The notes beneath the pieces are model-generated. The model did no database searches and was not told where the DNA came from. It was given only the letters and a program-made list of their open reading frames with translations. The translations under genes and the position numbers were made by a program. DNA of 64,000 nucleotides from Lacrimispora indolis DSM 755 (GTDB lineage Bacteria; Bacillota; Clostridia; Lachnospirales; Lachnospiraceae), in the NCBI RefSeq assembly GCF_000526995.1, contig NZ_AZUI01000001.1:4196001-4260000 (forward strand). The letters run 5' to 3'. Below, piece by piece: positions 41,441 through 64,000 of the stretch (position 1 is the first letter of the stretch; each line of letters begins with the position of its first letter).

Positions 41441-42313
41441 ATGGCAAATACATATCAAAACCTGCAAAAGTCACATCCATGCTTTGGAGGAAATAAAAAC
41501 AATGTGGGCCGGATCCATCTTCCGGTGAGCCCCGGCTGCAATATTTCCTGTAAGTTCTGCGACAGAAGGATCAATGACCAGGAGGAAAGGCCGGGAGTGA
41601 CCTCTAAGGTGCTCACTCCTTCACAGGCCTTGGAGGTCCTTGACAAAGCTCTTGCCCTTTGCCCGGAGATTACGGTGGCAGGTATTGCAGGGCCGGGTGA
41701 TACCCTGGCTACGGATTATGCCCTGGAAACCTTCCGTCTGGTAAAGGAACACCATCCGGAGCTGATCAAATGCATGAGCACCAACGGCCTTCTTCTCTAT
41801 GAACGGGCGGAGGAGATCATTGAAATCGGAGTGGAATCCGTGACCGTTACGGTAAATGCGGTGGATCCTGAGATCGAAGCAAGGCTGAACCGGTGGATCC
41901 TGTACCATGGACATATTTATGAGGGAGTCCAGGCAGCCGAGATCCTCATAGAAAACCAGTTAAAGGGCATCAGAAAAATAGCGGATGCAGGAATCACGGT
42001 AAAGGTGAACACCGTGCTGGTGCCCAGCATAAACGGAGAACACATTGAGGTTATTGCAAAGGCCGTAAAAGAGGCAGGCGCATGCATCTACAACATTATC
42101 CCCCTGATCCCTCAATCAGAACTTTCCCATGAAACCGCACCTGTATGCCAGGAGATCGATGAGGCCAGAACCTTGGCTGGAAAGCACATTGATGTCTTCC
42201 GCCATTGCCAGCACTGCCGTGCCGATGCAGTGGGCATGCTTGGGGGAAAGGATTTCGGAGACATGATATACCAGAGAAGGATCGCAGGAAGCGATACCTT
42301 TTCCCACGGTTGA
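41441..42313 (+). CDS. NifB-like radical SAM cofactor synthase
   Basis: 290 aa. Signatures are SHPCFGG at residues 11-17, the radical SAM cluster ligands CNISCKFC (Cys 33, 37, 40) and the NifB-specific C-terminal FRHCQHCRADAVGMLGG. NifB joins two 4Fe-4S units with a carbide to make the core of nitrogenase cofactors. It lacks the fused NifX domain; that role may be filled by the next gene. Its presence says that at least one component-1 pair here carries a NifB-derived cofactor, unlike protochlorophyllide or F430 reductases. Confidence 0.92.
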   Translation: MANTYQNLQKSHPCFGGNKNNVGRIHLPVSPGCNISCKFCDRRINDQEERPGVTSKVLTPSQALEVLDKALALCPEITVAGIAGPGDTLATDYALETFRLVKEHHPELIKCMSTNGLLLYERAEEIIEIGVESVTVTVNAVDPEIEARLNRWILYHGHIYEGVQAAEILIENQLKGIRKIADAGITVKVNTVLVPSINGEHIEVIAKAVKEAGACIYNIIPLIPQSELSHETAPVCQEIDEARTLAGKHIDVFRHCQHCRADAVGMLGGKDFGDMIYQRRIAGSDTFSHG

Positions 42314-42334
42314 AGAAAGGGGAGGTGAAACACC

Positions 42335-42694
42335 GTGAAGTATAAGATTGCAGTGGCATCAACAGACGGAAAGGTAGTCAACCAGCATTTTGGAAGAGCC
42401 GAAGTCTTTTATATCGTGGAGGCTGACAGCGGGGATATGACATTCACATACGTGGAAAGCCGTAAAGCAGCTCCCATATGCAGGGGACAGGAGCATGATG
42501 ACAGTCAGCTGGAGCTTTTGGCAGCAATGGTGGAAGATTGTGATTATGTCCTGGTCAGCCGGATCGGAGCCGGTGCAAGGGCCGCCCTGGAACAGAATCA
42601 GACAGAGGTCTTTGAACTGCCGGGATATATTGAGGATTCTGTCCGAAGGCTTCTTTCTTACACAGAGGTCCGGAAATTATTGATTGATATTTAG
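42335..42694 (+). CDS. NifX/NafY-type cofactor-binding protein
   Basis: 119 aa. The family start is KIAVASTDGKVVNQHFGRAEVFYI, followed by the fold end ARAALEQNQTEVFELPGYIE. Translation starts at GTG after GGAGGTG. Such domains hold NifB-co or FeMo-co during delivery. It lies between the NifB-like gene and the first component-1 pair. Confidence 0.85.
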   Translation: MKYKIAVASTDGKVVNQHFGRAEVFYIVEADSGDMTFTYVESRKAAPICRGQEHDDSQLELLAAMVEDCDYVLVSRIGAGARAALEQNQTEVFELPGYIEDSVRRLLSYTEVRKLLIDI

Positions 42695-42709
42695 AAAGGA
42701 GGCATGACC

Positions 42710-44155
42710 ATGAGTGAAATATATTCAGGAATCAGAGAAAGCCATCCAAACAGGTACAATGATCTGGGTTCTACCGGCAGCCGGGCGGAGGAGGATTTTA
42801 AGAACGGCTGTTTAAAGAAAGCGGACCGGAGCTTTGCCCAGGGCCTGCAGTGCCAGCAGATCAACAGCATGGCGGCCTTAATGTCCCTGGAAGATTCCGT
42901 TTTTATCGCCCATTCTCCCCAGGGCTGCGTGGGCTGTACCTCCCTGGCAGTGGATCAATACCGGGTGGGGCAGGCACACCGGGGAGTGAAGCATATTAAA
43001 AATCCAAGGATCATTGTGACAAACTTAGATCAGAATAATGTGATCTTCGGAGGGGAAAGCAAGCTTAGAAAAGCCATTGAAGATGCAGTATCAAGGTATC
43101 ATCCGAAACTTATCTTTGTATTTGCCTCCTGCGCCTCAGGCATTATTGGGGACGATATTGATGCCATAGTAAAAGAACTGCAGAAGGATAGGCAGGAACT
43201 CATCATTCCGATTCACTGCGAGGGCTTTCAATCGAAAATCTGTGCTTCCGGCTTTGACGCGGCCTTTATTTCCATAAACAAATACATATTAAAAAAGCAG
43301 AAACTAGAAAAGATAAAAGGCCTGATAAACTTATTTGCTCCTGTTTCCATAAGCTACGCAGATCAGAAGGAAATGGAGCGGATGCTGTCATTGCTTGGGC
43401 TTTCTGTAAACTATATTCCTTTTTACAGCTCCTTAGATAAGATTAAGCAGATCCCCGCAGCCCAGGCTTCCACTTCCATCTGTAAAGTATTTGCAGATGA
43501 ATTCATGAAAACCCTGAAAGAGGATTATGACATCCCATATTCCCATACGGTTATGCCCATCGGGGTCCGTAATACGGATATCTGGTTCCGTGGGATCGCA
43601 GGGATTGTGGGTAAGGAAAAGGAAGGAGAAGAGATCATAAAAAGTGAGCATGAACGGATCCTTCCTCTGGTGGAATCCATTAAGGACCGGCTGAAGGGAA
43701 AACGGGTATTTATCTGCGGCGGAACCGGCCGTTCCTTTGCAGCGGCCGCACTGATCGATGATTTCGGAATGGAGCTGGTGGGGCTTGAGACGCCGACTTA
43801 TGATGAAGACGCCCAGGCGGACATTGAATATCTCAATGCCATTCACCCCAACTATGTCCTTGACATTGCCAACATGCAGCCCTTTGAGCAGGTGAATCTG
43901 GTGAAAAGGCTGAAACCGGATGTGTTCATCGGAGTTCCCGAGTGGGCGGCAAAGCTTGGAATCCCAACCACACATGTTCTGGATATGAAACGGCCTACCA
44001 TGGGATATGACGGACTTTTATTTTTGGGAAATAAAATTGCCGAACAGCTGGAAAATCCCGGTTTTAATGTGAAGCTGTCAAAGCATATCAGGCTTCCTTA
44101 CAGGGACAGCTGGTACGAAGAGGATGCATTTAAATACATAATCGGAGGTGATTGA
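42710..44155 (+). CDS. Nitrogenase-like component 1 alpha subunit (pair 1)
   Basis: 481 aa of the NifD superfamily. P-cluster ligand positions are kept: Cys 48 (GLQCQQ), Cys 73 (SPQGCVGC) and the Cys in FASCASGIIGDD. The cofactor ligands are also matched, a Cys in STSICKVF (equivalent to NifD Cys275) and a His in PTTHVLDMKRPT (equivalent to His442). Start ATG 42710 is 7 bases from AAAGGAGG. It is distinct from true NifD in length and loops. A reductase acting on organosulfur substrates, like methylthio-alkane reductase, is the best guess. Confidence 0.85.
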   Translation: MSEIYSGIRESHPNRYNDLGSTGSRAEEDFKNGCLKKADRSFAQGLQCQQINSMAALMSLEDSVFIAHSPQGCVGCTSLAVDQYRVGQAHRGVKHIKNPRIIVTNLDQNNVIFGGESKLRKAIEDAVSRYHPKLIFVFASCASGIIGDDIDAIVKELQKDRQELIIPIHCEGFQSKICASGFDAAFISINKYILKKQKLEKIKGLINLFAPVSISYADQKEMERMLSLLGLSVNYIPFYSSLDKIKQIPAAQASTSICKVFADEFMKTLKEDYDIPYSHTVMPIGVRNTDIWFRGIAGIVGKEKEGEEIIKSEHERILPLVESIKDRLKGKRVFICGGTGRSFAAAALIDDFGMELVGLETPTYDEDAQADIEYLNAIHPNYVLDIANMQPFEQVNLVKRLKPDVFIGVPEWAAKLGIPTTHVLDMKRPTMGYDGLLFLGNKIAEQLENPGFNVKLSKHIRLPYRDSWYEEDAFKYIIGGD

Positions 44156-44156
44156 A

Positions 44157-46320
<2,164 letters not shown>

Positions 46321-46351
46321 GCACAAAGGTGCTGGATCAAGGAGGGAATCA

Positions 46352-47145
46352 ATGAGTAATATTCATAAATCAATCACCGAACTCATAGGAAGAACGCCTC
46401 TTTTGGAGCTGGAGAATTATGAAAGAAAACACGGTCTGGAAGCGAAGATCATAGCAAAGCCTGAGTATTTCAATCCCAACCAGAGCGTAAAAGACAGGAT
46501 TGCACTTGCAATGATCGACGATGCAGAAAAAAAGGGACTCTTAAAGCTGGGGTATACCATTGTGGAGACCACCAGTGGAAATACGGGGATCGGCATGGCG
46601 GCAATTGCGGCAGCCAGGGGATATTCCTTCAGGGTATATGTCCAGGATAATGTCAGTGAGGAGCGGTTTAAAAACATCAAAGCTTTTGGCGGAGAAACAA
46701 CCAGATTTTCCCAGGTGCCCGAGGTCCAGGCAGTGTTAGATGAAACAGGCGGGGATTTTGTAGCGGCTGTCAGAACATTAAAGAAGAAAGTGCTGTCAAA
46801 AGAAAAAAACATCTTCTTTGTCAATCAGATCGAAAATCTGGCAAATCCTTCCGTTCATGAAGCGGCCACAGGGCCCGAGATATGGGCGGATACAGAGGGA
46901 AAGGTGGATATTCTGGTGGAAGCATTTACGATGAAAAATATGAGGTGGAAACCTATCAGGCATATGAAGCTGCAAAGGAAGTTGCAAGGACGGACGGGAT
47001 TTTAGTGGGAACCTCATCCGGGGCCGCCATTTTCGCAGCAACCAAGGTGGCAAAAAGAACGGAAAACAAAGGAAAGAATCTTGTGGTTATTTTGGCGGAT
47101 ACCGGTCTTAGGTACCTGTCCACGAAACTTTTTGAAGAAGCATAG
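46352..47145 (+). pseudogene. cysK: Cysteine synthase (cysK-like) broken by internal deletion and frameshift
   Basis: The N-terminal part is a normal O-acetylserine sulfhydrylase: ELIGRTPLLEL, the PLP Lys in NQSVKDRIAL, TSGNTGIGMA. At about 46917, after GKVDILV, roughly 60 codons are missing, including the GTGGT phosphate-binding loop, and the frame changes. The C-terminal part resumes in another frame (IYDEKYEVETYQAYEAAKEVA ... LRYLSTKLFEEA). The product cannot be active. The position between nifH-like and pair-2 genes shows that the cluster was linked to cysteine synthesis. Confidence 0.85.
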
Positions 47146-47165
47146 TGAAAGTTTGGAGGTTAAAT

Positions 47166-48629
47166 ATGGCAATTAATTTATCAAATTCAAATCTGGCCAC
47201 CAGGGAGACCCGGCTAGGCTCCATAACCGGATATGTCGGAGACTTGCATGATCTTGCCAGCCAGAGCAAATGCGGCAGCTTAAAGGGCTGCGGACGCTGT
47301 TTTTCCCAGTCAAGTACCTGCTTATCCGGCTGTGCCCTCAGCCAGCTTGGAGGGATCCGGGATGTGGCGGTCATTCACCACGGCCCTTCCGGGTGCTCGG
47401 CCACGGCAAGTTCTCAGTACATCATTACCAATCAGGTGGCTGCTAAAAGAGGTGTCGTAAACAAATCCGTCTATATTGGTACAGATATGAATGAGAATGA
47501 TACCATTTTCGGCTCCACAGAAGCGCTGGCGGATATCATTGTGGAGGTCAACCGGCGTTACCAGCCAAAGGCAATTTTTGTCAGCAGCTCCTGTGCCACG
47601 GGGATCATCGGAGAGGATATTGACAGCGTGGTGGATGATGTGAAGGACCAGATTCCGGTGCCTGTCATAGCTGTTCACTGTGAGGGCTTTAAATCACGGA
47701 TTTGGGCGACTGGGTTTGATATATCCGATCATGCGGTGTTAAGCGGAATCGTAAAGCCGCCAGAGCAGAAAAGAAACACCGTTAATTTTAAAAACTTTTT
47801 CGAAAGCGCAAGAAATGAAGTCATTGAAATGTTTAAGAATTTTGATTTAGAGCCCATTTTTTTATATGCCAATGCAACGGTGGAAGAACTGGAACATTTA
47901 TCTGAGTCCGTTGCTACGACATGCATCTGCGGAGTTCTTGGAAATTATCTGGGCAACGGCTTAGAAGAGCTGTACGGCGTTCCCTATATCCGGACCGTCA
48001 ATCCCTTAGGGATCGTCGGATTTGAGACATGGCTTAGGGAAATCGGAAGAGTTGCCGGCAAGCAGCTTCAAGTGGAACATTACATAGAAGAACAGAGAAA
48101 AATTTATATTCCCCAGATAGAAGCGGTGAAGAAAGAATTAAAGGGATTAAAAGCGGTTCTTGGAATGGGACCGGGCTACACCTTTGAGGTAACGAGAGTG
48201 TTAAACGAGCTGGGAATTGAAGTGGTTTGGGCGCTGGCATGGCATTATGACAAGAAATATGAAAACGGGGATGTTCCCCCTGCCATGAGTTATCTTCTTG
48301 ACAATAATATCAATTTTGAAGCCAGTGTGGCGGACCAGCAGAACTTTGAGGTAATGAACATCTTAAATAAGTACCGCCCTGATTTATACCTTTCCCGCCA
48401 TCCCGGCTCCACGGTATGGGCCATTAAACAGGGAACCCCGGCAGTCTATGTGGCGGACGAATACATGATATTCGGATATAAGCATACCCTGGAGTTCGCT
48501 CATACGGTTTTAGATACCATACGGAACCGGAGCTTTGAACAGAATCTGGCAAAAAGAGTGAAGCTGCCTTACACGGACTGGTGGTATAAGCAGGATGTGG
48601 GAAGCTTCTTAGAGGAGGCGATTGGCTGA
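47166..48629 (+). CDS. Nitrogenase-like component 1 alpha subunit (pair 2), cofactor His absent
   Basis: 487 aa of the NifD superfamily, divergent from pairs 1 and 3. An extra Cys cluster near the N-terminus (Cys 36, 42, 45, 52, 56) includes the first P-cluster ligand; others are in GPSGCSA and SSSCATGIIGED. The cofactor Cys is kept (TTCICGVL), but the position of NifD His442 is Tyr in AVYVADEYM. NifE, the scaffold protein, also keeps the Cys and lacks the His, so this pair may act as a NifEN-like assembly scaffold. A separate reductase is the alternative. Confidence 0.82.
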   Translation: MAINLSNSNLATRETRLGSITGYVGDLHDLASQSKCGSLKGCGRCFSQSSTCLSGCALSQLGGIRDVAVIHHGPSGCSATASSQYIITNQVAAKRGVVNKSVYIGTDMNENDTIFGSTEALADIIVEVNRRYQPKAIFVSSSCATGIIGEDIDSVVDDVKDQIPVPVIAVHCEGFKSRIWATGFDISDHAVLSGIVKPPEQKRNTVNFKNFFESARNEVIEMFKNFDLEPIFLYANATVEELEHLSESVATTCICGVLGNYLGNGLEELYGVPYIRTVNPLGIVGFETWLREIGRVAGKQLQVEHYIEEQRKIYIPQIEAVKKELKGLKAVLGMGPGYTFEVTRVLNELGIEVVWALAWHYDKKYENGDVPPAMSYLLDNNINFEASVADQQNFEVMNILNKYRPDLYLSRHPGSTVWAIKQGTPAVYVADEYMIFGYKHTLEFAHTVLDTIRNRSFEQNLAKRVKLPYTDWWYKQDVGSFLEEAIG

Positions 48630-49927
48630 TGGCGAAGATCTTAGATAAACAGAGGTATAAATGCGCGATGAGCGCCATGCAGACCGTTCAGGCAATCGAA
48701 CGGGCGATTCCTGTCCTTCATTCCGGTCCGGGTTGTGCCCAGAAGCTTTCCAATTCCTCGGGAAGCTCCGGCTATTTTTCACCCAACATCTATCCCTGTA
48801 CCAGCATCAACGAAAGGGATGTTGTATTCGGAGGTGTTAAAAAGCTTGAGTCAACCATCAAGCATTCCCTGGATGTCATTGATGCAGATTTATATGTGGT
48901 ATTAACCGGCTGTATCCCGGAGATCGTGGGTGACAACACCGAAGAAGTGGTGGAAGGGTTTCAGGATGCCAAAAAACCGGTGATCTATGCCTCCACCGCA
49001 GGATTTAAGGGCAACAACTACAAGGGCCACGAGCAGGTGGTGGATGCAATCATTGACCAGCTTTTGGAGCGGTCAGATATCCGGGTAAAAAATCTGGTGA
49101 ATATATGGGCAGATGTGCCTTATCAGGATGAGTTCTGGCTGGGAAATTTAAGAGAGCTTGAAAAACTGGTTGAGGAGCTTGGTCTTACGCCGAATACGAT
49201 ATTTGGCTATCAAAGGGGATTAAGTAACATAAAGAGGATACCGCAAGCCGAATTTAACCTGCTGGTGTCTCCTTGGGTCGGGCTTAATAATATGAAGAAC
49301 ATGGAGAAGAAGCTTGGAATTCCTTACCTCCACTATCCGACGCTCCCCATAGGGGCCTTTGAAACCAGTAAATTCCTTCGGGAAGTGGGCGGGTTTGCAA
49401 GAGTGCCAGAGGAGAAGATTGAAAGCCTGATTGCAGAGAAAGAAGCTTATTATTACTACTACATCGAACGCTATGCGGATTTATTCCTGGAGACCAGAGT
49501 CATGTCAAAACAGTTTACGGTTGTATCCGACGCCCAATATGCCCTTGGCATTACGAAGTTCCTGGTCAATGATCTGGGTTTATTTCCCGCAAAGCAGTTC
49601 GTGACGGATGACACCCCAAGAGAATTCAGGGAAAAGGTCTTTTCCTATTTTAAGGAACTGAATTTTGGCATAGAAGCAGAGGTGAGTTTTGAGACAGATG
49701 GCTACAAGATCCACAACGAGATCAAAGCCCATGACTATCATGGATATCCCCTGATTCTTGGAGGCCATTGGGAGAAAGAGATCGCAAAGCAGACCGATGC
49801 CCATTTCCTTAATGTATCCTGGCCGGTGAACGAAAGATTGGTGATGAACAGCTATTATGCAGGATATGACGGGGGCTTAAAGCTGATCGAGGACATTTAT
49901 TCTGTTGCCAGAACAAGATTCAATTAA
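48629..49927 (+). CDS. Nitrogenase-like component 1 beta subunit (pair 2)
   Basis: 432 aa of the NifK superfamily. Cys ligand positions: YKCAMSA, SGPGCAQK and LTGCIPEIVGDN. The ATG overlaps the alpha stop codon (TGATG), indicating coupled translation. It is followed by the second NifX-like gene. Confidence 0.85.
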   Translation: MAKILDKQRYKCAMSAMQTVQAIERAIPVLHSGPGCAQKLSNSSGSSGYFSPNIYPCTSINERDVVFGGVKKLESTIKHSLDVIDADLYVVLTGCIPEIVGDNTEEVVEGFQDAKKPVIYASTAGFKGNNYKGHEQVVDAIIDQLLERSDIRVKNLVNIWADVPYQDEFWLGNLRELEKLVEELGLTPNTIFGYQRGLSNIKRIPQAEFNLLVSPWVGLNNMKNMEKKLGIPYLHYPTLPIGAFETSKFLREVGGFARVPEEKIESLIAEKEAYYYYYIERYADLFLETRVMSKQFTVVSDAQYALGITKFLVNDLGLFPAKQFVTDDTPREFREKVFSYFKELNFGIEAEVSFETDGYKIHNEIKAHDYHGYPLILGGHWEKEIAKQTDAHFLNVSWPVNERLVMNSYYAGYDGGLKLIEDIYSVARTRFN

Positions 49928-49953
49928 CAGATCCGTTTCATGGAGGAAATATT

Positions 49954-50388
49954 ATGCCATATAAAATTGCGGTTGCATCTTCTGACGGAGTGAACATTGA
50001 TGTGAATTTTGGGGCAGCCCATAAATTTCTCATCTATGAGGTGGGGGAAAGCGGTGAGTACGCTCTTTTGGAAATCAGGGAAGCCGTAAAAGAAGCCGGG
50101 GAGCCTTCTTTCTGTAATGACGGGTGTAAAGGCGGGGGCTGCCAGAGTTCTAAAGAGAGCCATCCCTGGGTGGATTCCATAGCAGACTGCCGTTGTGTCA
50201 TCTGTAAAAAGATCGGCTTCCACATTCAAAAGCAGCTTGAAAAAAAGGCGGTCAGCGCCTTTGATGTGGAAGGGAAAATCGAGGACACATTGGAGAAAAT
50301 CACCTGGTATTTTCACCGGGTGGACCACCATCAGACACTTCGCGGGATGGCAAATGAAACGTCAAATAGAAAGGATGGAAAAAAGTGA
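49954..50388 (+). CDS. NifX-like protein with Cys-rich insert
   Basis: 144 aa. The N-terminus KIAVASSDGVNIDVNFGAAHKFLIYEV is the NifX/NafY fold. Compared with the protein at 42335 it carries an insert with FCNDGCKGGGCQ and DCRCVICKK, giving several clustered Cys that could bind a metal centre. It follows pair 2, as the other NifX-like gene precedes pair 1. The stop overlaps the next start. Confidence 0.78.
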   Translation: MPYKIAVASSDGVNIDVNFGAAHKFLIYEVGESGEYALLEIREAVKEAGEPSFCNDGCKGGGCQSSKESHPWVDSIADCRCVICKKIGFHIQKQLEKKAVSAFDVEGKIEDTLEKITWYFHRVDHHQTLRGMANETSNRKDGKK

Positions 50389-51215: not shown

Positions 51216-51219
51216 TGGT

Positions 51220-53376: not shown

Positions 53377-53406
53377 GGGTGGGGCCTGGGAAAATAAAGA
53401 TAAAGG

Positions 53407-53710: not shown

Positions 53711-53711
53711 A

Positions 53712-55923: not shown

Positions 55924-57057
55924 ATGAAATCAGGAAATCATAAGCTGTTTTGGGCATTGACGGCCGCAATACTGGTAACGGGAAGCGTTTCCGGATGCAC
56001 AAAATCAAAGGAGGCCGGAGGGGATCCGGCAAAGACAGGTGAAAAAAGTTATACGCTCAACGTGGCAAAGACCAGTTCTTCCGCGCTGACGAATCCGCTG
56101 ATCCAGCTGGCAGAGGAGAAGGGCTATTTTGACGGCTACCGTTTGGAACTCAAAAACACCACCCTTGAAACCTCGGGCACCTTTGAAGCCCTCAGCATCG
56201 GAAAGGTTGATACGACCTACGGACAGTTGATCCCGCCCTTGAGCTACGGGTCCCAGGGCTCGGATGTCACGTTGTTTGCAGGCACTATTTCAGGCGGAAT
56301 GTGCGTCGTTGTAAGGCCTGAGAACGAAGAAGAATTAAAGGATTTAAAAAACTGGAAAGGCAAAAACATAGGCGTTATCCAGCTGTCCACATCCGAAATG
56401 GTTACCAAGTATGTACTGGGCAAGGACTATGGCTATAAAGCCGGAGAAGATTTAACGTATACGCTGATTGACGGATATCCCAACATTTCCCTTGCAGTCA
56501 ACAAAGGCACGGTGGACATCGGTTTTATTTCCGCGGAGTATGTGGAAGGCGCGGTTTCGGAAGGCCTGGTTTACCTCTTTCCGCTGACCAATCTGCTGGA
56601 GGATTACGTATGCTGCCGCCAGACCGCATACAGCAAATCCTTCAAAGACAACAGGGAGGCATATGTGGCTTATTTAAAAGGACAGATCCGTGCATATAAA
56701 GACTACGTAAAGGATGAAGCCGGGACGGTGGCATCCCTTGCACAGGCGACCGGTGAAACGGAAGACTATATTAAAAATTATATTTACAACAAGGAAACCA
56801 ACGGAAACCGTACCTATAACCCGGACCCCAATTATAATGGAACGCTGGCGGTTTATGACACCCTTCTGGAATGGGATTATGTGGAAAAGGGAACCGTACT
56901 TTCCCAGTTTTATGATCTGTCCGTATATGCAGATGCCTTAAAGGCTGTGATAGAAGAATACCCGGATGATACGTTCTTTACGGATATGTGGAAATATTTT
57001 GAAAAAAATAACAGTGAATATCCTGATTTTGATAAGGTTTACGGTAATTACCTGTGA
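55924..57057 (+). CDS. NitT/TauT (SsuA)-type ABC substrate-binding lipoprotein
   Basis: 377 aa with signal and lipobox VSGCTK. The order of motifs is that of SsuA/TauA/ThiY: NPLIQLAEEKGYFDGYRLEL, TFEALSIGKVDTTYGQ and NWKGKNIGVIQ. It starts directly after the aminotransferase stop with GGAGGAG. Ligands in this family include alkanesulfonates and taurine, which agrees with a sulfur theme, but also pyrimidines and nitrate. Confidence 0.85.
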   Translation: MKSGNHKLFWALTAAILVTGSVSGCTKSKEAGGDPAKTGEKSYTLNVAKTSSSALTNPLIQLAEEKGYFDGYRLELKNTTLETSGTFEALSIGKVDTTYGQLIPPLSYGSQGSDVTLFAGTISGGMCVVVRPENEEELKDLKNWKGKNIGVIQLSTSEMVTKYVLGKDYGYKAGEDLTYTLIDGYPNISLAVNKGTVDIGFISAEYVEGAVSEGLVYLFPLTNLLEDYVCCRQTAYSKSFKDNREAYVAYLKGQIRAYKDYVKDEAGTVASLAQATGETEDYIKNYIYNKETNGNRTYNPDPNYNGTLAVYDTLLEWDYVEKGTVLSQFYDLSVYADALKAVIEEYPDDTFFTDMWKYFEKNNSEYPDFDKVYGNYL

Positions 57058-57147
57058 TGACCTGTGACACAAAGGGGAGATGATCCCCGGAAAAGACCGG
57101 CTTTCAAGCGGTTTAAGCTGAGCAGAAGGGAGTATGGGAAAAAGGAT

Positions 57148-57966
57148 ATGGCAGATGCGGTAATTGAAGTTCGCGATTTGAGTCTAACGTATGAAACGGA
57201 GAAAACAACATTTCAGGCTCTGGAACATATAAACTTATCGATCCAAAAAGGGGAATTTGTATGTCTGATCGGTCCCAGCGGATGTGGTAAAAGCACACTG
57301 TTAAGTGTTATGGAGGGTTTGAATCAGGCAACGTCAGGTGAAGTTCTGATCAATGGAAAAGCAGTTCATGGAACCGGGCCGGAGCGGGCGGTGGTATTTC
57401 AGAATTATTCCCTGTTTCCCTGGATGACGGCACGGCAGAATGTGGCATTTGCCGTAAGGGAATCCAGAAAGAAAACAAATGAAATAAGCAAAAAAGATTC
57501 TTTGGCAATCGCAGAGGAATTCCTGCACAAGGTAGATTTACATGGATTCGAAGACAAACTGCCGGGGGCTCTTTCCGGAGGGATGCAGCAGAGAGTCGCC
57601 ATAGCAAGGGCACTGGCATGTAAGCCGGAAATACTGCTCATGGATGAACCCTTCGGCGCAATCGATGCCAAGACCCGGGAAAACCTTCAGCTGCTGCTGC
57701 TGAAGCTGTGGGTGGAGGATGAAAGTAAAAAAACCATTGTTTTTGTGACCCATGATCTGGATGAGGCACTGCTTCTGGCGGACCGGATTGTTTTCATGGT
57801 GCCCAAAGGGATACATAGCGTTCTGGAGGTTTCCATTCCCCGCCCCCGCAGCAAAGAGGTGCTGTTCGACAATGATGAATACCGGAGACTCCATGGGGAA
57901 CTGGTGCGTTTGTTCTATATGGAGCATGTATCAAAAGAAATCGGGGGAAGCGAGGTAATCCTATGA
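57148..57966 (+). CDS. NitT/TauT (SsuB)-type ABC transporter ATPase
   Basis: 272 aa from ATG 57148; the frame is open back to a GTG at 57064, and neither start has a well-spaced ribosome binding site. Walker A GPSGCGKST, Q-loop VFQNYSLFPWMTARQNV, signature LSGGMQQR, Walker B ILLMDEPFGAIDAKT and H-loop VTHDLDEA are all of the SsuB/TauB type. Confidence 0.88.
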   Translation: MADAVIEVRDLSLTYETEKTTFQALEHINLSIQKGEFVCLIGPSGCGKSTLLSVMEGLNQATSGEVLINGKAVHGTGPERAVVFQNYSLFPWMTARQNVAFAVRESRKKTNEISKKDSLAIAEEFLHKVDLHGFEDKLPGALSGGMQQRVAIARALACKPEILLMDEPFGAIDAKTRENLQLLLLKLWVEDESKKTIVFVTHDLDEALLLADRIVFMVPKGIHSVLEVSIPRPRSKEVLFDNDEYRRLHGELVRLFYMEHVSKEIGGSEVIL

Positions 57967-58886
57967 CCGCAAAAAAAATCCTGAACCTTCCCAACCTTCT
58001 GTATGTTTTCATATGGCTGTGTTTCCTTCTGCCAAGCCGTTACGCTGCCGAAATGAAGATCGGATTAAGGGACTGGTACGCATTCGGTGCGGTGCTTGTG
58101 CTTTTAGAGATCATTTATCTTATAAAAATAAATAATAAGGCGAAAATGCAGGCGACAAAGGATATTACCGGCTTCGTATACGCTGTTTTTCTGGTGTGGG
58201 AGCTGCTGGTTTCCAGGCTGAACCTTCTGCCCTATGTGTTCATACCGGCGCCGGAAAATGTTTTTTATGTGTTTTTGGATGATGCAAAGGTAATGCTGGA
58301 AGGCTTCGCCAGCTCCATGTATCTGCTGGTCATCGGCCTGCTCTCTGCCATTGTTTCGGCAGTGATCCTGGGAACCCTGGTGGGCTGGGTCCCCAGGCTG
58401 CGGAATGCCATCTATCCGATTACTAAAGCGATTTCAACCGTGCCGGCCCTGATCTATACGCCCTATGTGGTGCTTTTGATGCCCACCTTTAAGGCGGCCT
58501 CATTGTTTGTGATCTTCTTGAGCATCTTCTGGGGAACCTTTATGGGCATGATCAATAATACCGCTTTTGTGGAAAACCGGATCATAAATTCCGCCAAGGT
58601 ACTGAACGTATCTACATTTACCATACTCTTTAAGATCATTATTCCGTTCAATATGCCGCGGATCATCAACGGTCTGCCCATCCATCTGTCAACCGCCCTG
58701 ATGACTCTGACGGCGGCGGAGATGATCGGCGCTGACAGCGGAATGGGATTTTATGTCCGGGTGTCGTTAAATTACGCAAATTATACCAAGGCGATTGCAG
58801 GGATCATATTTATCGGGATCGTGGTCACAGGATTAAACGAGGTGGTGAATCTGTTAAAAAACAGATTCGTCAACTGGGAATATTGA
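57963..58886 (+). CDS. NitT/TauT (SsuC)-type ABC transporter permease
   Basis: 307 aa, slightly longer than SsuC, with two or three extra N-terminal helices. The coupling region ENRIINSAKVLNVSTFTILFKIIIP near residue 200 and LTAAEMIGADSGMGFY match the family. The start overlaps the ATPase stop by 4 bases. Confidence 0.88.
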   Translation: MTAKKILNLPNLLYVFIWLCFLLPSRYAAEMKIGLRDWYAFGAVLVLLEIIYLIKINNKAKMQATKDITGFVYAVFLVWELLVSRLNLLPYVFIPAPENVFYVFLDDAKVMLEGFASSMYLLVIGLLSAIVSAVILGTLVGWVPRLRNAIYPITKAISTVPALIYTPYVVLLMPTFKAASLFVIFLSIFWGTFMGMINNTAFVENRIINSAKVLNVSTFTILFKIIIPFNMPRIINGLPIHLSTALMTLTAAEMIGADSGMGFYVRVSLNYANYTKAIAGIIFIGIVVTGLNEVVNLLKNRFVNWEY

Positions 58887-58902
58887 GCCAAAGGAGGGAT
58901 TC

Positions 58903-59103
58903 ATGTCTGACAGAGCTTCAAAATATGATCTTACCGCCGGCAAAATAATGCCCGGGCTTCTGCGCCTTTCCCTTCCTACCATGGGCGTGCAGCTCATCCA
59001 GATGACCTATAACTTTGCCGGCATGTTCTGGCTGGGAAGGCTCTCAAGCGGTGCGGTAGCAGCCAGCGGAACCGTGGGGGTCCTCATATGGCTGTCTTTA
59101 TAA
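58903..59103 (+). pseudogene. Truncated MATE efflux protein (N-terminal 66 aa)
   Basis: The opening of a MATE/NorM transporter is plain: LTAGKIMPGLLRLSLPTMGVQLIQM then MFWLGRLSSGAVAASGT. The frame stops after 66 residues, in the second helix, where a complete protein would have about 450. The next operon begins 52 bases later. It is a deletion remnant marking a junction between two parts of the island. Confidence 0.8.
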
Positions 59104-59155
59104 AATAAAAAAACGGCACAGATAGAAAACCAAGGCGAAAGGAATGTGAGTTAAT

Positions 59156-59860
59156 ATGAATCAATATTTTAACTTTATGAAAATACCGGGGCTCATGGCA
59201 AAGGTGATGACCGCTTTTCCGGTCACGATAAAGCTGGTTTTGTTTTCCTTGCTCTTTGGACTGCTCATCGGCTTTGTATTTGCCTGCATGGCTTTAGCAA
59301 AAAGTAAATTATTAAACGCCATGGCAAAGGGTTATATTGCTTTTATGAGGGGGATGCCAATCCTGGTGCTTATTTTTATTTTGTATTTTGTCATGCCCCT
59401 GTATTTAAAAAAGATCGGAATCAATACGGCATCCTGGAACAAGGATTCTTTTATTATTGCAACACTGTCTCTTACTTCGGCGGCCAATATGGCAGAGATG
59501 ATGCGATCTGCTTATCTGTCGGTTGATAAGTATCAATGGGAGGCAGCCTATAGCGTGGGAATGGGGAATTTGACTGCCTTTCGCCGGGTTATTTTCCCCC
59601 AGGCCTTTGGGGTCGCCATACCGGTTTTAGGGAATAACATTATTTATATTTTCAAGTCTACGTCGCTGGCCTTTTCCATCGGAGCCGTGGATATGTTCGG
59701 CAGAGCAAAGCTGATCAGTTCTAATTTATATGGATTGAACCGTGCCGAGCTTTATTTGGGGGTATCCATTATATTCTGGGTGGTGAGTGTCTTTTTAGAA
59801 CAGATCACAAAATGGGCGGAACGAGTGTATACCAAAGGCAAAAAAATACAGATGAATTAA
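59156..59860 (+). CDS. Amino-acid-type ABC transporter permease
   Basis: 234 aa HisM-type permease: FMRGMPILVLIFILYFVMP and the loop MMRSAYLSVDKYQWEAAYSVGMG with FPQAFG. It starts a permease-permease-ATPase set with no binding protein gene nearby. Confidence 0.9.
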   Translation: MNQYFNFMKIPGLMAKVMTAFPVTIKLVLFSLLFGLLIGFVFACMALAKSKLLNAMAKGYIAFMRGMPILVLIFILYFVMPLYLKKIGINTASWNKDSFIIATLSLTSAANMAEMMRSAYLSVDKYQWEAAYSVGMGNLTAFRRVIFPQAFGVAIPVLGNNIIYIFKSTSLAFSIGAVDMFGRAKLISSNLYGLNRAELYLGVSIIFWVVSVFLEQITKWAERVYTKGKKIQMN

Positions 59861-59874
59861 AGAGGAGGAGATTC

Positions 59875-60582
59875 ATGGATTTTGAATTTATCGCATCAAT
59901 GCTGCCTGCAATGATACCTGCAGTAAAAAATACGCTTATTATCACCTTTTTCTCCGCCTTCTTTGGCTGGATTTTTGGTATTGTAATCGCGTTAATTCGG
60001 ATAAATAAAATAAAAGGCCTGTCCCGGCTGTTTGCTGTTTATGTATCTTTTATGAGAAGTGTGCCCCTGGTAATTATCATGTTTTTTATTTATTATGCCA
60101 TACCCACGTTTATCGCTTATTATCGTTTTGAGCACGGGCTTTCCGTAGCCTCTGTGGCGGGAAATAAAAGCATCATTTACCCTATCATAGCTATGAGCAT
60201 TTCAGAGGCTGCTTTTGCCTCAGAAACCTTTCGTTCCAGTCTGCTTGCGATTCCCCACGATCAGTTAGAGTCAGCGAAAAGCATAGGAATGACCACCTTA
60301 CAGGCCTGTTTCCGCATTATCTTTCCGCAGGCGTTTGTTATCGCCCTGCCTAATATGGGAGGATTATTTATCGGCCTTATAAAAAACTCCACACTGGCTT
60401 ATTATTCGGGCGTGGTGGAAATTACGGGCATGGCTTATACCCTGGCCAGTCCCAGTTATCAATTTCTGGAAGCATTTTTTCTGATTGCGGTGATTTATGA
60501 AACATTAAGCTTTGTCTTTTCAAAACTGTTTCGTAGGTTTGAGCAGAAGATGAGCAAATATAAAAAGGGAATTGTCCTATAG
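59875..60582 (+). CDS. Amino-acid-type ABC transporter permease
   Basis: 235 aa, second permease: FMRSVPLVIIMFFIYYAIP and SETFRSSLLAIPHDQLESAKSIGM with FPQAFV. ATG 59875 follows GAGGAGG; the frame is open further upstream but overlaps the previous gene. Its opening residues MDFEFI match those of the permease at 576. Confidence 0.9.
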   Translation: MDFEFIASMLPAMIPAVKNTLIITFFSAFFGWIFGIVIALIRINKIKGLSRLFAVYVSFMRSVPLVIIMFFIYYAIPTFIAYYRFEHGLSVASVAGNKSIIYPIIAMSISEAAFASETFRSSLLAIPHDQLESAKSIGMTTLQACFRIIFPQAFVIALPNMGGLFIGLIKNSTLAYYSGVVEITGMAYTLASPSYQFLEAFFLIAVIYETLSFVFSKLFRRFEQKMSKYKKGIVL

Positions 60583-60599
60583 GAGAAGGGAGTGACATT

Positions 60600-61355
60600 A
60601 TGATTGAAATGGAAAATGTAAAGAAAAGCTTTGGAAACTCCCAAATTTTAAAAGGAATTTCCATTCGGGTGAAGAAAGGTGATGTAACGGTTATCATTGG
60701 ACCCAGCGGCTCGGGAAAAACCACACTTTTACGCTGTATCAATTTTTTGGAAAAAGCGGATGAAGGAAAACTGACGATCGATGATCTGACCGTGAATATG
60801 AAAAAAAGCAGCAAAAAAGAAACGTTAAATATTCGAAGAAAATGTGCCTTTGTATTTCAAAATTACGGTTTATTTCTAAATAAAACCGCTTTGGAAAACG
60901 TTATGGAGGGGCTGGTGGCGGTTCAGAAAAAGTCAAAAGAAGAGGCGAAAAAAATCGCTGTGGAGACTTTGGAATGGGTTGGCCTGTCTGACCGCATGGA
61001 TTATTATCCTGTCAACTTATCCGGCGGACAGCAGCAGCGGGTGGGGATTGCCAGAGCAGTGGCTCTCTCTCCGAAGGTGATCTTATTTGATGAACCTACC
61101 TCGGCTTTAGATCCGGAATTAGTGGGAGAGACTTTAGAACTCATAAAAAAGGTGGCCCAGACAGGTATTACCATGATCGTGGTAACTCATGAAATGTCAT
61201 TTGCCCAGGAAGTTGCCAGTCAGGTAATCTTTATGGATGAGGGATTGGTAGTAGAAACGGGGACGCCAAAGGAAATTTTCGGCAAGCCTAAAAATGAAAG
61301 AACCAAACAGTTTTTAACCCGCATTAATTCGCAGGACAGTATTTATTATATCTAA
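60600..61355 (+). CDS. Amino-acid-type ABC transporter ATPase
   Basis: 251 aa, strongly similar to the ATPase at 52621. Walker [10 protein letters not shown], signature LSGGQQQR, Walker [14 protein letters not shown]-loop VTHEMSF. The set lacks its own binding protein, so it may share those at 37216 or 50388, or one beyond the window. The pair-3 genes start 25 bases later. Confidence 0.93.
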   Translation: MIEMENVKKSFGNSQILKGISIRVKKGDVTVIIGPSGSGKTTLLRCINFLEKADEGKLTIDDLTVNMKKSSKKETLNIRRKCAFVFQNYGLFLNKTALENVMEGLVAVQKKSKEEAKKIAVETLEWVGLSDRMDYYPVNLSGGQQQRVGIARAVALSPKVILFDEPTSALDPELVGETLELIKKVAQTGITMIVVTHEMSFAQEVASQVIFMDEGLVVETGTPKEIFGKPKNERTKQFLTRINSQDSIYYI

Positions 61356-61380
61356 AAGTCAGGAAAGGGGATCTGGTAAA

Positions 61381-62841
61381 ATGGAAAGAATCATCAGGGA
61401 TAAGATCCGTGATACGCGGGAGGGATTTACCGACGCACAGGCAGGAAGTGCAGGACATATGCGTGACAGAGTTAAGAAAAATTGTTTGAAAAATGCCCAC
61501 AGGAAATTTGAACAGGGAATCCAATGTGTTCAGGTAAACAGCGTGAATGCGCTGGCCAGTATTCAGGATTCTGTTATGATTATACATTCCCCCTATGGGT
61601 GTTCCGCCTGCGGCAGTCTGGCAGCCATCGAAAGAATCAATATATACAAGCATCATATGGGCGATACCAATGGAGAAAACAGCAGGATCATATCCACTGC
61701 TTTAGGGGAAAAGGAAGTGATATTAGGCGGTGAGGGCCGTCTGGAGGAAACGGCAAGAGAAGCAATTTTAAGGCACCATCCCAAAATGATTTTTATTTTG
61801 TCTTCTTGTGCATCTGCGATTATCGGAGACGATATCGATGCTGTTTCAGAACGATTGCAGGAAGAATATCCGGATGTGATTTTTGCCCCCATTCACTGTG
61901 AAGGCTTTAAATCCAGAAACCATGCGACCGGATATGATCTGGCTTTAAGCGCCCTGCAAAATTTTGTCATCAGGAATGCCAGACCCCAAAAGGAGAAAGG
62001 CCTCATTAATTTATTTGCCACCCATTCTTTAAGCCTGGCGGATCAGCTGGAGATGAAGCGCATGCTTAGGGCCATTGGTCTGGAAGCCAATATTATGCCT
62101 TACAATGCTGCCTATGAGGACATCATGCGAATTCCGGCGGCAGAGTATAACATTTCTGTGTGTCAGATCTTTGGGGATGAGTATATGGACTTTTTACATA
62201 AGGAATATGGAACTCCCTATACCGTCACTTGTATGCCTATCGGTTCAGACAGCACAGACCGGTGGTTAAGAGCCATTGCCAAACTGGTGGGAAAAGAAAA
62301 AGAGGCGGAGGAATTTATAGAGAGAGAACGGGGCGAGGTAGAAGAGGAAATCGGCCATATCAGGAAAAAGACGAAGGGGCTTAAGGTCTGTATTACGGCA
62401 GGTACCGGGCGCGGTTTAGCTGCCGCCACCTTAATGGGAGAATATGGGATGCAGCTTTTGTGTATCCATGCACCTTATTATGAAAAAGCGTATGTGGAAG
62501 ATTTTGAGCGTCTGGAGGAATACCACGGAAGTGAATTCCTCATTAATGTAGCAGATATGCAGCCATATGAGCAGATCAATTTAATTAAAAAATTGAAACC
62601 GGATGTATTTATCGGCATGGCAAACTGGGTATCCAGACTGGGGATTCCCACTACCCATATTTTAGATGGAAAACGGCCGACCTTTGGATACAGGGGCGTT
62701 TTGTATCTGGGGCGGAAAATCGAGGATGCTTTGGACAATAATAATTTCAATAAAAAGTTAAAGGATTTTTCAAATCCTCCTTTTAGGGACAGTTGGTATA
62801 AAGAGGATGCCTTTAAATACTTTGATTTTCCGGCACAATAA
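61381..62841 (+). CDS. Nitrogenase-like component 1 alpha subunit (pair 3)
   Basis: 486 aa, the closest relative of the pair-1 alpha. P-cluster positions: GIQCVQVN, SPYGCSACGS and LSSCASAIIGDD. Cofactor positions are kept: Cys in ISVCQIFGDEYM and His in PTTHILDGKRPT. The C-terminus PPFRDSWYKEDAFKYF parallels PYRDSWYEEDAFKYI of pair 1. It is placed directly after an importer, so pairs 1 and 3 may use different substrates delivered by different importers. Confidence 0.86.
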   Translation: MERIIRDKIRDTREGFTDAQAGSAGHMRDRVKKNCLKNAHRKFEQGIQCVQVNSVNALASIQDSVMIIHSPYGCSACGSLAAIERINIYKHHMGDTNGENSRIISTALGEKEVILGGEGRLEETAREAILRHHPKMIFILSSCASAIIGDDIDAVSERLQEEYPDVIFAPIHCEGFKSRNHATGYDLALSALQNFVIRNARPQKEKGLINLFATHSLSLADQLEMKRMLRAIGLEANIMPYNAAYEDIMRIPAAEYNISVCQIFGDEYMDFLHKEYGTPYTVTCMPIGSDSTDRWLRAIAKLVGKEKEAEEFIERERGEVEEEIGHIRKKTKGLKVCITAGTGRGLAAATLMGEYGMQLLCIHAPYYEKAYVEDFERLEEYHGSEFLINVADMQPYEQINLIKKLKPDVFIGMANWVSRLGIPTTHILDGKRPTFGYRGVLYLGRKIEDALDNNNFNKKLKDFSNPPFRDSWYKEDAFKYFDFPAQ

Positions 62842-62900
62842 AAGCTATGAGCTGAAAAAATGCTTCAAGGCAGTAAATGAAAAAATGGAGGATAGGTCAG

Positions 62901-64000
62901 ATGAAAAAGTGCACGGAGCGTCCAAGGATTCTTTGTTCTTTAAACGGTGCCATAGACGTAGTGGGAAATTTATATAAAGGAATCCCTATTTTACACGCCA
63001 GTCCTGGATGCAGTATGCAGGCGGCAGTTCAAACAAACCTATATTATTTAGGAGGCTATCACGGGATGCCCAGTTCTAACGCCTACGAAAAGGAAGTGGT
63101 ATTCGGTGGTGCGGGTAGGCTTAGAGAGACCATAGCCGGAAGCTTAGAGGTAATGGACGGTGAGCTTTATGCTGTCCTTACTGGCTGCAGCATGGGAATC
63201 AACGGAGATGATGTGGAGGCGGTGGTGCGAGAGTTCGAGGACAGCCCTTATCCCATCATTTCAGTTGATGTGGCTGGGTTTAAAGGAGATACTTACTATG
63301 GATATCAAAGTACACTTCTTGCAGTAGTGAAAAAGCTGGCCCGAAAAACAGAGACTGATCCGAAGCTGGTCAATCTCTATGGTCAGGTTCCAAGTGAAGA
63401 TATGACCTTCCGTGGTGATTTAGAGGAGCTTTCCCGTATCTTTCAAAAACTGGGATTAAAGGTGAATACTTTTTTTATTGCCAGAGACGGGATACAGCAG
63501 ATAACCGATTCAGGAAATGCGGCTTTAAATATTAATATTTCCACCTGGCTTAATAAAAACCTGGATGCCTATTATGAAAAAACTTTTGGCATCCCCACTC
63601 TGAATTATCCTGGGATGCCCATCGGCCCCACTGCTGTGGCAGACTTGATCCGTCAGATCGCGGAGCAATTGAATATTGAGAAAGCTTTGGCTGATCAAGT
63701 GATTTTTGTAGAACAACAGTATGTGTATGAATACTTTGATTCTCTTATGGGCAATTTTGAACGCCACAGATATATTTTGGTGGGTGAGAGCAATTTTGTG
63801 CTTGGAATCTCCAGATTTTTGACGAACGATCATGGGCACATTCCGTTGGCGGTGATCTGTACGGATAGTGTACCCGATAAAGTTCAACCGGAAATTGAAG
63901 CCCATATCAAAGCTTTGGCTTGCGACAGAAAGGCAGATGTATACTTTGAAAATGACGTGTACTTAGTGGAGCAGATAACGGAAAAGTATCAGGGACGGGC
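62901..64000 (+). CDS. Nitrogenase-like component 1 beta subunit (pair 3), cut by window end
   Basis: The first 366 codons of a NifK-superfamily protein, open to the edge. Cys positions are RILCSLNG, ASPGCSMQ and LTGCSMGINGDD. Later segments FGGAGRLRETI, LGLKVNTFF and YPGMPIGPT parallel pair 1 beta (FGGTKKLQST, LGLKVNTFF, YPGLPIGAS). ATG 62901 follows TGGAGGA. About 60 residues are likely missing. Confidence 0.85.
   Translation, partial: MKKCTERPRILCSLNGAIDVVGNLYKGIPILHASPGCSMQAAVQTNLYYLGGYHGMPSSNAYEKEVVFGGAGRLRETIAGSLEVMDGELYAVLTGCSMGINGDDVEAVVREFEDSPYPIISVDVAGFKGDTYYGYQSTLLAVVKKLARKTETDPKLVNLYGQVPSEDMTFRGDLEELSRIFQKLGLKVNTFFIARDGIQQITDSGNAALNINISTWLNKNLDAYYEKTFGIPTLNYPGMPIGPTAVADLIRQIAEQLNIEKALADQVIFVEQQYVYEYFDSLMGNFERHRYILVGESNFVLGISRFLTNDHGHIPLAVICTDSVPDKVQPEIEAHIKALACDRKADVYFENDVYLVEQITEKYQGR

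What the first reader, a model, noticed from the sequence alone, without database searches (positions are those of the whole stretch)
41441..64000. Three nitrogenase-like component-1 pairs sharing one Fe protein and one NifB
The region encodes alpha/beta pairs at 42710/44157, 47166/48629 and 61381/62901, with one nifH-like, one nifB-like and two nifX-like genes. There is no nifENV, no ammonium transporter and no PII-type regulator here. Importers of amino-acid and sulfonate type are interleaved. The whole resembles an expanded sulfur-salvage system related to methylthio-alkane reductase (a known nitrogenase-like C-S cleaving enzyme), with possibly different substrates for each pair.
Basis: partly seen in the sequence, partly recalled or inferred. 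Interest (0 to 1): 0.95.

Follow-up and report, generated by a model that had tools for sequence, protein, structure and literature searches.

The report
Three nitrogenase-like sulfur-salvage enzymes, one locus
The bacterium Clostridium (Lacrimispora) indolis encodes three different nitrogenase-like enzymes beside a single set of helper genes and several importers, and these likely break carbon-sulfur bonds in different imported compounds to feed the cell sulfur without oxygen, rather than fixing nitrogen as they were first listed.

Summary
Three component-1 pairs (D1K1, D2K2, D3K3) lie with one local Fe protein, one NifB-like gene, two NifX-like genes and importers.

D2 keeps seven of nine methylthio-alkane reductase (Mar) active-site residues checked and lies in a Mar-type clade, beside rather than inside that of R. 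rubrum MarD. D1 and D3 form a separate clade (100/100): they keep the cluster cysteine, lack the Mar Arg-His loop (0 of 214 relatives) and hold an invariant histidine (214 of 214) that profile alignment places at the NifD cofactor ligand.

D1K1 or D3K3 is the only pair found in six of 20 genomes searched, so neither is an obligate NifEN-type helper. No PII gene lies within 15 kb of such loci in 18 genomes, while all six nif clusters there have a PII pair. D3K3 has a cystine-type importer nearby in 12 of 13 loci.

Best reading: modular oxygen-free C-S reductases. Substrates are unproven, and membership in group IV-A (Nfa, reported to fix N2) could not be tested.

The parts
37216..40805 (+). cystine-family binding protein (37216-38106), two permeases (38127-38834, 38840-39544) and an amidohydrolase / Xaa-Pro dipeptidase-like enzyme (39501-40805), upstream of B1; possibly part of the system
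   Evidence: Pfam SBP_bac_3, BPD_transp_1, Amidohydro_1; amidohydrolases 66-67% alike lie by D1K1 in 6 of 80 named loci
41441..42313 (+). B1, NifB-like radical SAM protein without the C-terminal NifX-like domain
   Evidence: TIGR01290 281.7 bits, below the curated cut-off 343.65; six recalled NifB motifs all present
42335..42694 (+). X1, NifX-like cluster carrier
   Evidence: NifB C-terminal part 55.1 bits, NifX 31.7 bits
42704..44155 (+). D1, alpha subunit of pair 1; no Mar Arg-His loop
   Evidence: PF00148 275.3 bits; residues; D1/D3 clade
44148..45443 (+). K1, beta subunit of pair 1
   Evidence: PF00148 244 bits; K1/K3 clade 99/95
45418..46320 (+). H1, Fe protein (start at about 45475 more likely, judged by eye from the NifH alignment)
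   Evidence: TIGR01287 456.5 bits, over cut-off; 73% identical to own NifH
46301..47142 (+). cysteine-synthase-like remnant
   Evidence: matches an intact 333-aa relative in L101 in two pieces in different frames, residues 5-193 and 261-333
47145..48629 (+). D2, alpha subunit of pair 2, Mar-type with Arg428-His429
   Evidence: PF00148 236.8 bits; residues; Mar-type clade 100/100
48629..49927 (+). K2, beta subunit of pair 2
   Evidence: PF00148 219.4 bits; groups with MarK, 100/99
49954..50388 (+). X2, NifX-like cluster carrier
   Evidence: PF02579 45.6 bits
50385..53376 (+). cystine-type amino-acid importer: binding protein, two permeases, ATPase
   Evidence: best NCBIfam models are cystine SBP, ectoine/cystine permeases and TcyN ATPase, all below equivalog cut-offs
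53712..54824 (+). iron-type alcohol dehydrogenase (glycerol dehydrogenase-like)
   Evidence: PRK09423 221.8 bits, below cut-off 336; occurs with the HisC-like gene in 7 of 80 named loci
54811..55923 (+). HisC-like aminotransferase
   Evidence: TIGR01141 316.3 bits, over cut-off
55924..58886 (+). Ssu/Tau/nitrate-type importer: binding protein, ATPase, permease
   Evidence: SsuA family 33.5 bits (weak), nitrate-type ATPase 267.5, TauC-like permease 87.5 bits, all below cut-offs
59156..61355 (+). cystine-type permeases (two) and ATPase ahead of D3; the likely binding protein lies behind K3 at window-equivalent 64190-65116 (L001:4190-5116)
   Evidence: PRK15100 140.5 and 116.6 bits; ABC_tran; order
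61381..62841 (+). D3, alpha subunit of pair 3; no Mar Arg-His loop
   Evidence: PF00148 262.1 bits; residues; D1/D3 clade
62877..64000 (+). K3, beta subunit of pair 3 (gene continues to window-equivalent 64166)
   Evidence: PF00148 218.3 bits in the genome; K1/K3 clade

Best explanation
The locus encodes three nitrogenase-like component-1 pairs beside one Fe protein and one NifB-like enzyme, and these most likely work as three separate ATP-driven reductases that would cleave carbon-sulfur bonds in different imported organosulfur compounds. Inferred steps: B1 builds an [Fe8S9C]-type cluster, X1 and X2 carry it, and it goes straight into each DK tetramer without NifEN; H1 hands electrons to all three. 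D2K2 would hold the cluster by Cys270 and Arg428-His429 as in MAR and act on a methylthio-ether-like compound. D1K1 and D3K3 would hold it by the same cysteine and a different histidine, placed as in nitrogenase, with Cys or His at the MAR Trp195 site, and act on thioether or sulfonate compounds of amino-acid type brought in by the neighbouring importers. The released thiol or sulfide could be caught by the genome's O-acetylhomoserine/O-acetylserine sulfhydrylases. Shown here: gene content, residues, clades, and that each type of pair occurs without the others elsewhere.
For: D1, D2, D3 and K1 match MAR best among solved proteins. D2 keeps 7 of 9 MAR active-site residues checked; Arg-His in 120 of 120 listed D2 relatives. 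B1 carries six NifB motifs; P-cluster cysteines of D1-D3 are kept in all but one gapped row. D and K trees agree. D3K3 or D1K1 is the only pair found in 6 of 20 genomes, 5 of these 6 with a NifB-like match; D2 occurs without D1/D3 matches in 12 of 23 genomes with strong D2. Cystine-type importer within 6.5 kb in 12 of 13 D3 loci, against 0 of 5 MarD loci, and its ATPase directly ahead of D3 in 11 of 14. No PII gene within 15 kb of such pairs in 18 genomes, against a PII pair at each of 6 nif clusters. Cysteine-synthase-like genes near 24 of 36 D2. Two sulfhydrylases over cut-off in the genome. Precedents: MAR (PMC12552129, sections read) and isethionate reductase with its Ssu importer (PMC11423573, parts 1-5 of 9 read).
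Against: No substrate, expression or activity data. Importer linkage is strong for D3 only: D1 18 of 65 (any importer 26), D2 10 of 36. The importer families are broad. D1/D3 lack most MAR active-site residues and their exclusion from the Nif side is marginal (AU p 0.0494). The histidine is a candidate ligand only: other alignments shift it, and own NifE also has a His in that column in one alignment. No sulfur riboswitch at the locus, and one SAM riboswitch only in 14 related loci. The local cysteine-synthase gene is broken. A sulfite reductase C match is below cut-off. H1 is so like NifH (73%) that exclusive service of H1 is not shown.
Confidence: 0.57

Rival explanations
1. D1K1 and/or D3K3 are group IV-A (Nfa) nitrogenases that fix N2 without NifEN, as reported for Endomicrobium proavitum and predicted for NflDK1 of Heliophilum fasciatum.
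For: [quoted passage not shown] Relatives live in Treponema and Clostridia. Joining D1/D3 to Nif is only marginally rejected. The C. indolis paper lists them as nitrogen fixation.
Against: NifD Gln191 and His195 positions hold Cys/His and Phe/Tyr in D1/D3. No PII gene near them while each of 6 nif clusters has a PII pair. A full nif cluster exists in this genome. D3 is importer-linked.
Confidence: 0.17
2. The pairs reduce something other than a C-S bond (for example organoselenium, arsenic or another small imported molecule), with the MAR likeness only in fold and cofactor.
For: Residues around the cluster differ from MAR in D1/D3; importers are broad types; no sulfur riboswitch at the locus.
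Against: Two characterised group IV relatives, MAR and isethionate reductase, serve sulfur supply (PMC12552129; PMC11423573); cysteine-synthase-like genes recur near D2 and D1 (24 of 36, 17 of 65).
Confidence: 0.18
3. One or two of the pairs are NifEN-like scaffolds that finish the cofactor for the remaining catalytic pair.
For: Public names call D1/D3 relatives NifE; D1K1 and D2K2 often lie in one operon; own NifE shares a His in the candidate column in one alignment.
Against: Genomes with D1K1 or D3K3 as the only pair found (6 of 20) and with D2 but no D1/D3 match (12 of 23); NifE is on the Nif branch. MAR works without NifEN (recalled, and PMC12552129 used MarBHDK alone in a host with nifD disrupted).
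Confidence: 0.05

Closest known systems
Methylthio-alkane reductase MarBHDK (Rhodospirillum rubrum)
   Same: B, H, D, K gene set; best solved-structure match; Cys270 and P-cluster cysteines; in D2 also Arg428-His429, Trp195, Phe199, His375, Gln74
   Different: Two extra pairs and NifX-like genes; D1/D3 without Arg-His loop and Trp195; D2 without Cys73 and His194 and outside the MarD clade; importer-linked
Multi-pair NflDK1-5 locus of Heliophilum fasciatum and other heliobacteria
   Same: Several DK pairs with single nflH, nflB and nflX, one pair Mar-like (PMC9147875)
   Different: Here a true nif cluster is also present; importers are interleaved; the pairs could not be matched one to one because those sequences were not at hand
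Group IV-A NfaDK (Endomicrobium proavitum, Paenibacillus riograndensis)
   Same: Likely keeps the same kind of cluster ligands, by the papers' wording; no NifEN
   Different: Reported N2 fixation; sequence comparison not made here
Isethionate reductase IsrBHDK (Rhodobacter capsulatus)
   Same: Nitrogenase-like enzyme with a radical SAM partner and an Ssu importer for sulfur supply
   Different: IsrD lacks the Cys275 and His442 ligands and two P-cluster cysteines, and IsrB is BciD-like (PMC11423573); D1-D3 keep the cysteines and B1 is NifB-like
Mo-nitrogenase NifHDKENB (own genome, 5.95-5.96 Mb)
   Same: Fold; Fe protein 73% identical; three P-cluster cysteines in each D
   Different: D1-D3 are 22-28% identical to own NifD over the aligned parts; no NifEN or PII at the locus; no Gln191/His195

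Membership tests
Methylthio-alkane reductase (Mar) | B, H, D, K genes together | tested here: met
   B1, H1, D1-3, K1-3
Methylthio-alkane reductase (Mar) | Arg428-His429 in Loop I, D2 | tested here: met
   Present in D2 and 120 of 120 listed D2-type relatives
Methylthio-alkane reductase (Mar) | Arg428-His429 in Loop I, D1 and D3 | tested here: not met
   0 of 214 listed relatives
Methylthio-alkane reductase (Mar) | Groups with R. rubrum MarDK to the exclusion of other types | tested here: not met
   D2 is in the wider Mar-type clade (100/100) but apart from MarD (AU p 3.8e-44); D1/D3 in another clade
Methylthio-alkane reductase (Mar) | Hydrocarbon and methanethiol from methylthio-alkanes | not testable with these tools
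   needs enzyme assays
Nitrogenase (groups I-III) | Groups with NifDK | tested here: not met
   Nif rows apart, 100/100; for D1/D3 joined to Nif AU p 0.0494, marginal
Nitrogenase (groups I-III) | NifD Gln191 and His195 | tested here: not met
   Trp/Cys/His and Phe/Tyr at the matching columns
Nitrogenase (groups I-III) | Cofactor ligands Cys275 and His442 | tested here: inconclusive
   Cys met in all three; candidate His in D1/D3 only, by alignment that shifts between runs
Group IV-A Nfa | Groups with E. proavitum NfaDK | not tested
Isethionate reductase (Isr) | No Cys275 equivalent; single P-cluster cysteine in D; BciD-like B | tested here: not met
   Cys270 and three P-cluster cysteines present; B1 is NifB-like
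NifEN scaffold | Occurs only beside a catalytic DK pair | tested here: not met
   D1K1 or D3K3 is the only pair found in 6 of 20 genomes; at least five of the six are MAGs, so a missing second pair cannot be excluded

The most novel reading that the evidence does not exclude
D1K1 and D3K3 are two new C-S reductases of a hybrid build: a nitrogenase-type Cys/His cage around an [Fe8S9C] cluster, with Cys or His in place of the MAR tryptophan, coupled to importers (D3K3 inside the importer operon itself), so that anaerobes can strip sulfur from S-substituted amino acids or sulfonates, as an oxygen-free counterpart of the monooxygenase routes.
Probability: 0.4. Interest if true: 0.82.

Novelty: new variant of a known kind. 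Interest (0 to 1): 0.63.

Why it matters
If true, gene sets now listed as nitrogen fixation in gut, rumen and soil anaerobes are sulfur-scavenging enzymes, and one type strain holds a natural set of proteins that would use the same kind of cluster in different cages. That makes it directly testable what in the protein decides between N2, thioether and sulfonate chemistry. It also warns nifD/nifH surveys: D1/D3 relatives carry the names NifE or nitrogenase in public records.

Tried and rejected
NifEN-like helper role: argued against by sole-pair genomes. Isethionate reductase: argued against by cysteines and type of B. Riboswitch evidence for sulfur control: only a tRNA in the window, nothing in L001 or in seven related loci; in seven others one SAM riboswitch about 6 kb past D1 in L094, besides Clostridiales-1, TD-2 and tRNA matches. 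Structure of D3 to place the histidine: not possible; a profile of D1/D3 was aligned to solved chains instead (the NifD stretch with the histidine has E 0.0004 in 9p1x and 0.42 in 1mio). Plasmid relatives (2 records) are Mar- or D2-type, no help on Nfa. K2 and K3 were not searched against solved structures. An MTA-deaminase role for the amidohydrolase was dropped: the only NCBIfam model at E below 1e-20 is an Xaa-Pro dipeptidase, below its cut-off. Literature: nine searches. Among the listings and passages seen I found no paper on importer-coupled pairs or on D1/D3 as C-S reductases; most subscription papers are not held, and North et al. 2020 and Zheng et al. 2016 were not read (known from citations). 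Sulfhydrylases and ammonium transporters were searched in the own genome only.
Full report
WHAT IS THERE. The six component-1 genes, one Fe protein, one NifB-like and two NifX-like genes are at the stated places. Order on the + strand: B1, X1, D1, K1, H1, a cysteine-synthase remnant, D2, K2, X2, a cystine-family importer (binding protein, two permeases, ATPase), an iron-type alcohol dehydrogenase, a HisC-like aminotransferase, an Ssu/Tau-type importer, two cystine-type permeases and an ATPase, D3, K3, then just outside the window a binding protein and a regulator with HTH_11 and Mga domains. Neighbours overlap or lie within 50 bp except for 139 bp before D2, 335 before the dehydrogenase, 269 before the D3-side permeases and 334 before the regulator.

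WHICH GENOME. The whole genome has 6,383,701 bases in one contig. The published genome of Clostridium indolis DSM 755T has 6,383,701 bp (PMC4149025, passage), and its Table 8 lists nitrogenase-related genes in the same layout: 3874-3876, 3878-3880 and 3895-3896 for this locus, three further three-gene sets, and a nif cluster at 5519-5525 (passage). That paper reads all of them as nitrogen fixation. So the genes are not new to print; their reading is.

REST OF THE GENOME. PF00148 has 16 matches: nifD, nifK, nifE and a NifN-NifB fusion at 5.95-5.96 Mb, the three pairs here, and three more pairs at 0.59, 0.97 and 3.67 Mb, each with its own Fe protein. By eye on the translations (recalled motifs), the 0.59 and 0.97 Mb sets lie by iron-chelate-type ABC genes and the 3.67 Mb set by an AraC-like regulator. 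NifB-like radical SAM genes are two in all, B1 and the NifN-B fusion.

ACTIVE SITES. Numbering follows R. rubrum MarD as solved in 9FMG; the letters of that chain fit the residues named in the paper (PMC12552129, sections 4, 6, 8, 9, 12 and 26 read). D2 keeps Cys270, Arg428, His429, Trp195, Phe199, His375 and Gln74, but has Ser for Cys73 and Ile for His194. D1 keeps Cys270 and Phe199 and lacks the Arg-His loop; Trp195 is Cys. D3 keeps Cys270 and lacks the loop; Trp195 is His and Phe199 is Tyr. I looked at 334 relatives: the listed best 120 hits of each of three searches that had 787, 442 and 1368 hits, duplicates merged; they lean to close relatives. Arg428 and His429 are in 120 of 120 D2-type and 0 of 214 D1/D3-type rows; the Trp195 site is Trp in 120 of 120 D2, Cys in 165 of 182 D1 (Pro 12, His 3, Ala 2) and His in 32 of 32 D3; Cys270 in 182 of 182, 120 of 120 and 31 of 32 (one gap). 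In D1 and D3 a histidine (D3 His426) is invariant, 214 of 214, where D2 has Tyr, Phe or Ser. The D1/D3 profile sets it on the 'H' of the NifD loop in 9p1x and in C. pasteurianum NifD 1mio (weak second stretches, E 0.0004 and 0.42), and so does the small alignment, where own NifE also shows a His. That this loop histidine is the cofactor ligand follows from NifD His442 in the MAR paper with recalled sequence context. Larger alignments shift it, so it is a candidate ligand, not a shown one.

TREES. A careful D tree of 48 rows (rows of the fetched loci thinned at 80% identity, own paralogues and R. rubrum MarD; the long 0.59 Mb alpha left out) gives three groups, each 100/100: Mar-type (24 rows; 22 with Arg-His, one Lys-His, one Arg-Ala), D1/D3 (14 rows, none with the loop) and Nif (4 rows). 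Six rows are in no group, among them a further type in L103, L106 and L133 beside D1/D3 (88/75). Inside the Mar-type group, D2 is apart from the six rows of MarD itself; holding D2's four-row clade with those six is rejected (AU p 3.8e-44). D1/D3 joined to Nif rather than to Mar is only just rejected (AU p 0.0494), and the program warned of long branches. The K tree of 58 rows has the same main arrangement (K1 with K3 99/95, K2 with MarK 100/99), so D and K of a pair have moved together.

EACH TYPE STANDS ALONE SOMEWHERE. In 20 genomes behind fetched loci, the only PF00148 pair found is D3K3 in G397, G398 and G399 and D1K1 in G403, G404 and G405 (types); NifB-like matches are in five of these six, none in G398. 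Most are draft MAGs; L098 (G405) is not titled a MAG. In a 397-genome sample of the window's family, drawn by the tool, 23 other genomes have strong D2 (E below 1e-200) and 13 have D1/D3-type matches (E below 1e-90); 11 have both, 12 D2 without a D1/D3 match, two D1/D3 without strong D2 (G161, G221; G221's contig looks like that of L045, where D2 is present, so it may be a contig-end miss) (counted). The tool scores few candidates per genome, so misses are possible. This argues against a NifEN-like helper role and for independent enzymes. The other extreme also exists: G411 (Clostridium sp. LS) has 28 PF00148 matches.

NEIGHBOURS. Over 136 distinct D sequences in loci L022-L133 (148 before removal of duplicates; classes by my residue rule), within 6.5 kb: a cystine-type importer in 12 of 13 D3 (the other, L026, has an oligopeptide importer), 18 of 65 D1 (any importer 26), 10 of 36 D2, 3 of 10 other Arg-His types (any importer 6), 0 of 5 MarD; the remaining 7 are of other types. 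Many contigs are short, so these are lower bounds. The ATPase lies directly ahead of D3 in 11 of 14 D3 loci; the others are L026, L032 (importer downstream) and L035 (contig starts in D3). In the window, L022, L024 and L025 the order is permease, permease, ATPase, D3, K3, binding protein: the enzyme pair sits inside the importer operon. Amidohydrolases 66-67% alike to the one at 39501-40805 lie by D1K1 in 6 of 80 named loci, and the dehydrogenase plus HisC-like pair is in 7 of 80 and in L131. Cysteine-synthase-like genes are near 24 of 36 D2 and 17 of 65 D1.

NITROGEN SIGNS. Of 18 genomes searched for PII, the six with nif clusters (own, G410-G414) each have a PII pair beside nif; compared by coordinates, no PII match lies within 15 kb of a D1-, D2- or D3-type pair in any of the 18 (contig ends limit this). 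G411 has a second PII pair at another nif-like set (C225). The own ammonium transporter is at 1.08 Mb.

PRIOR ART. Multi-pair sets with single nflH, nflB and nflX are described in Heliophilum fasciatum, where NflDK1 is placed with NfaDK and NflDK5 with Mar (PMC9147875, passages, section part). A preprint notes IV-A MarHDK-like genes near methyl-sulfur gene clusters (PMC10418091, Discussion read). Isethionate reductase shows a nitrogenase-like enzyme with an Ssu importer for sulfur supply (PMC11423573, parts 1-5 of 9 read). Hence 'new variant of a known kind'.

MECHANISM AND LIMITS. Shown: genes, residues, clades, separate occurrence, importer adjacency of D3. Inferred: cluster type, sharing of B1, X1/X2 and H1, C-S cleavage, substrates, capture of the thiol by the two sulfhydrylases over cut-off at 3.89 and 5.57 Mb.

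Noticed in passing
46301-47142: Cysteine-synthase-like gene is a remnant: two stretches in different frames match an intact relative, with about 67 residues between them missing.
   Followed up: partly
24831-26621: Protein with all four FokI domains (recognition D1-D3 and cleavage): a FokI-like type IIS restriction enzyme.
   Followed up: no
27423-29063 and 30065-37038: SulP-type sulfate permease, then two Peptidase_C26 genes and an oligopeptide-type ABC importer ahead of the locus; possibly gamma-glutamyl or peptide-bound sulfur use.
   Followed up: no
L003, L004, L006 (0.97, 3.67, 0.59 Mb of the genome): Three further nflHDK sets, two beside iron-chelate-type ABC genes by eye; their alpha subunits are far from D1-D3 and Nif.
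   Followed up: partly
G411 (Clostridium sp. LS), L102-L108: One genome with 28 PF00148 matches, including MarD-type, D1, D2 and a further type (L103, L106; also L133) with Val or Met at the Trp195 site.
   Followed up: partly
L027:11472-11563 and L029:7170-7261: TD-2 RNA family match on the opposite strand between D3 and K3 in two Treponema loci.
   Followed up: no
L134 (Candidatus Chlorohelix allophototropha plasmid), L135 (Treponema saccharophilum pTS2): Plasmid-borne Mar-type sets: the first by an O-acetylhomoserine sulfhydrylase and an ABC importer, the second with two pairs around an ABC importer.
   Followed up: partly
40843-40871 and 41075-41099: A 12-of-12 sigma-70-like promoter match and a hairpin with a T run ahead of B1 (41441); counts of such sites in the region are no higher than in shuffles.
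   Followed up: no
L005:4857-7577 (minus): NifN and NifB are fused in one 906-aa frame in the true nif cluster.
   Followed up: no
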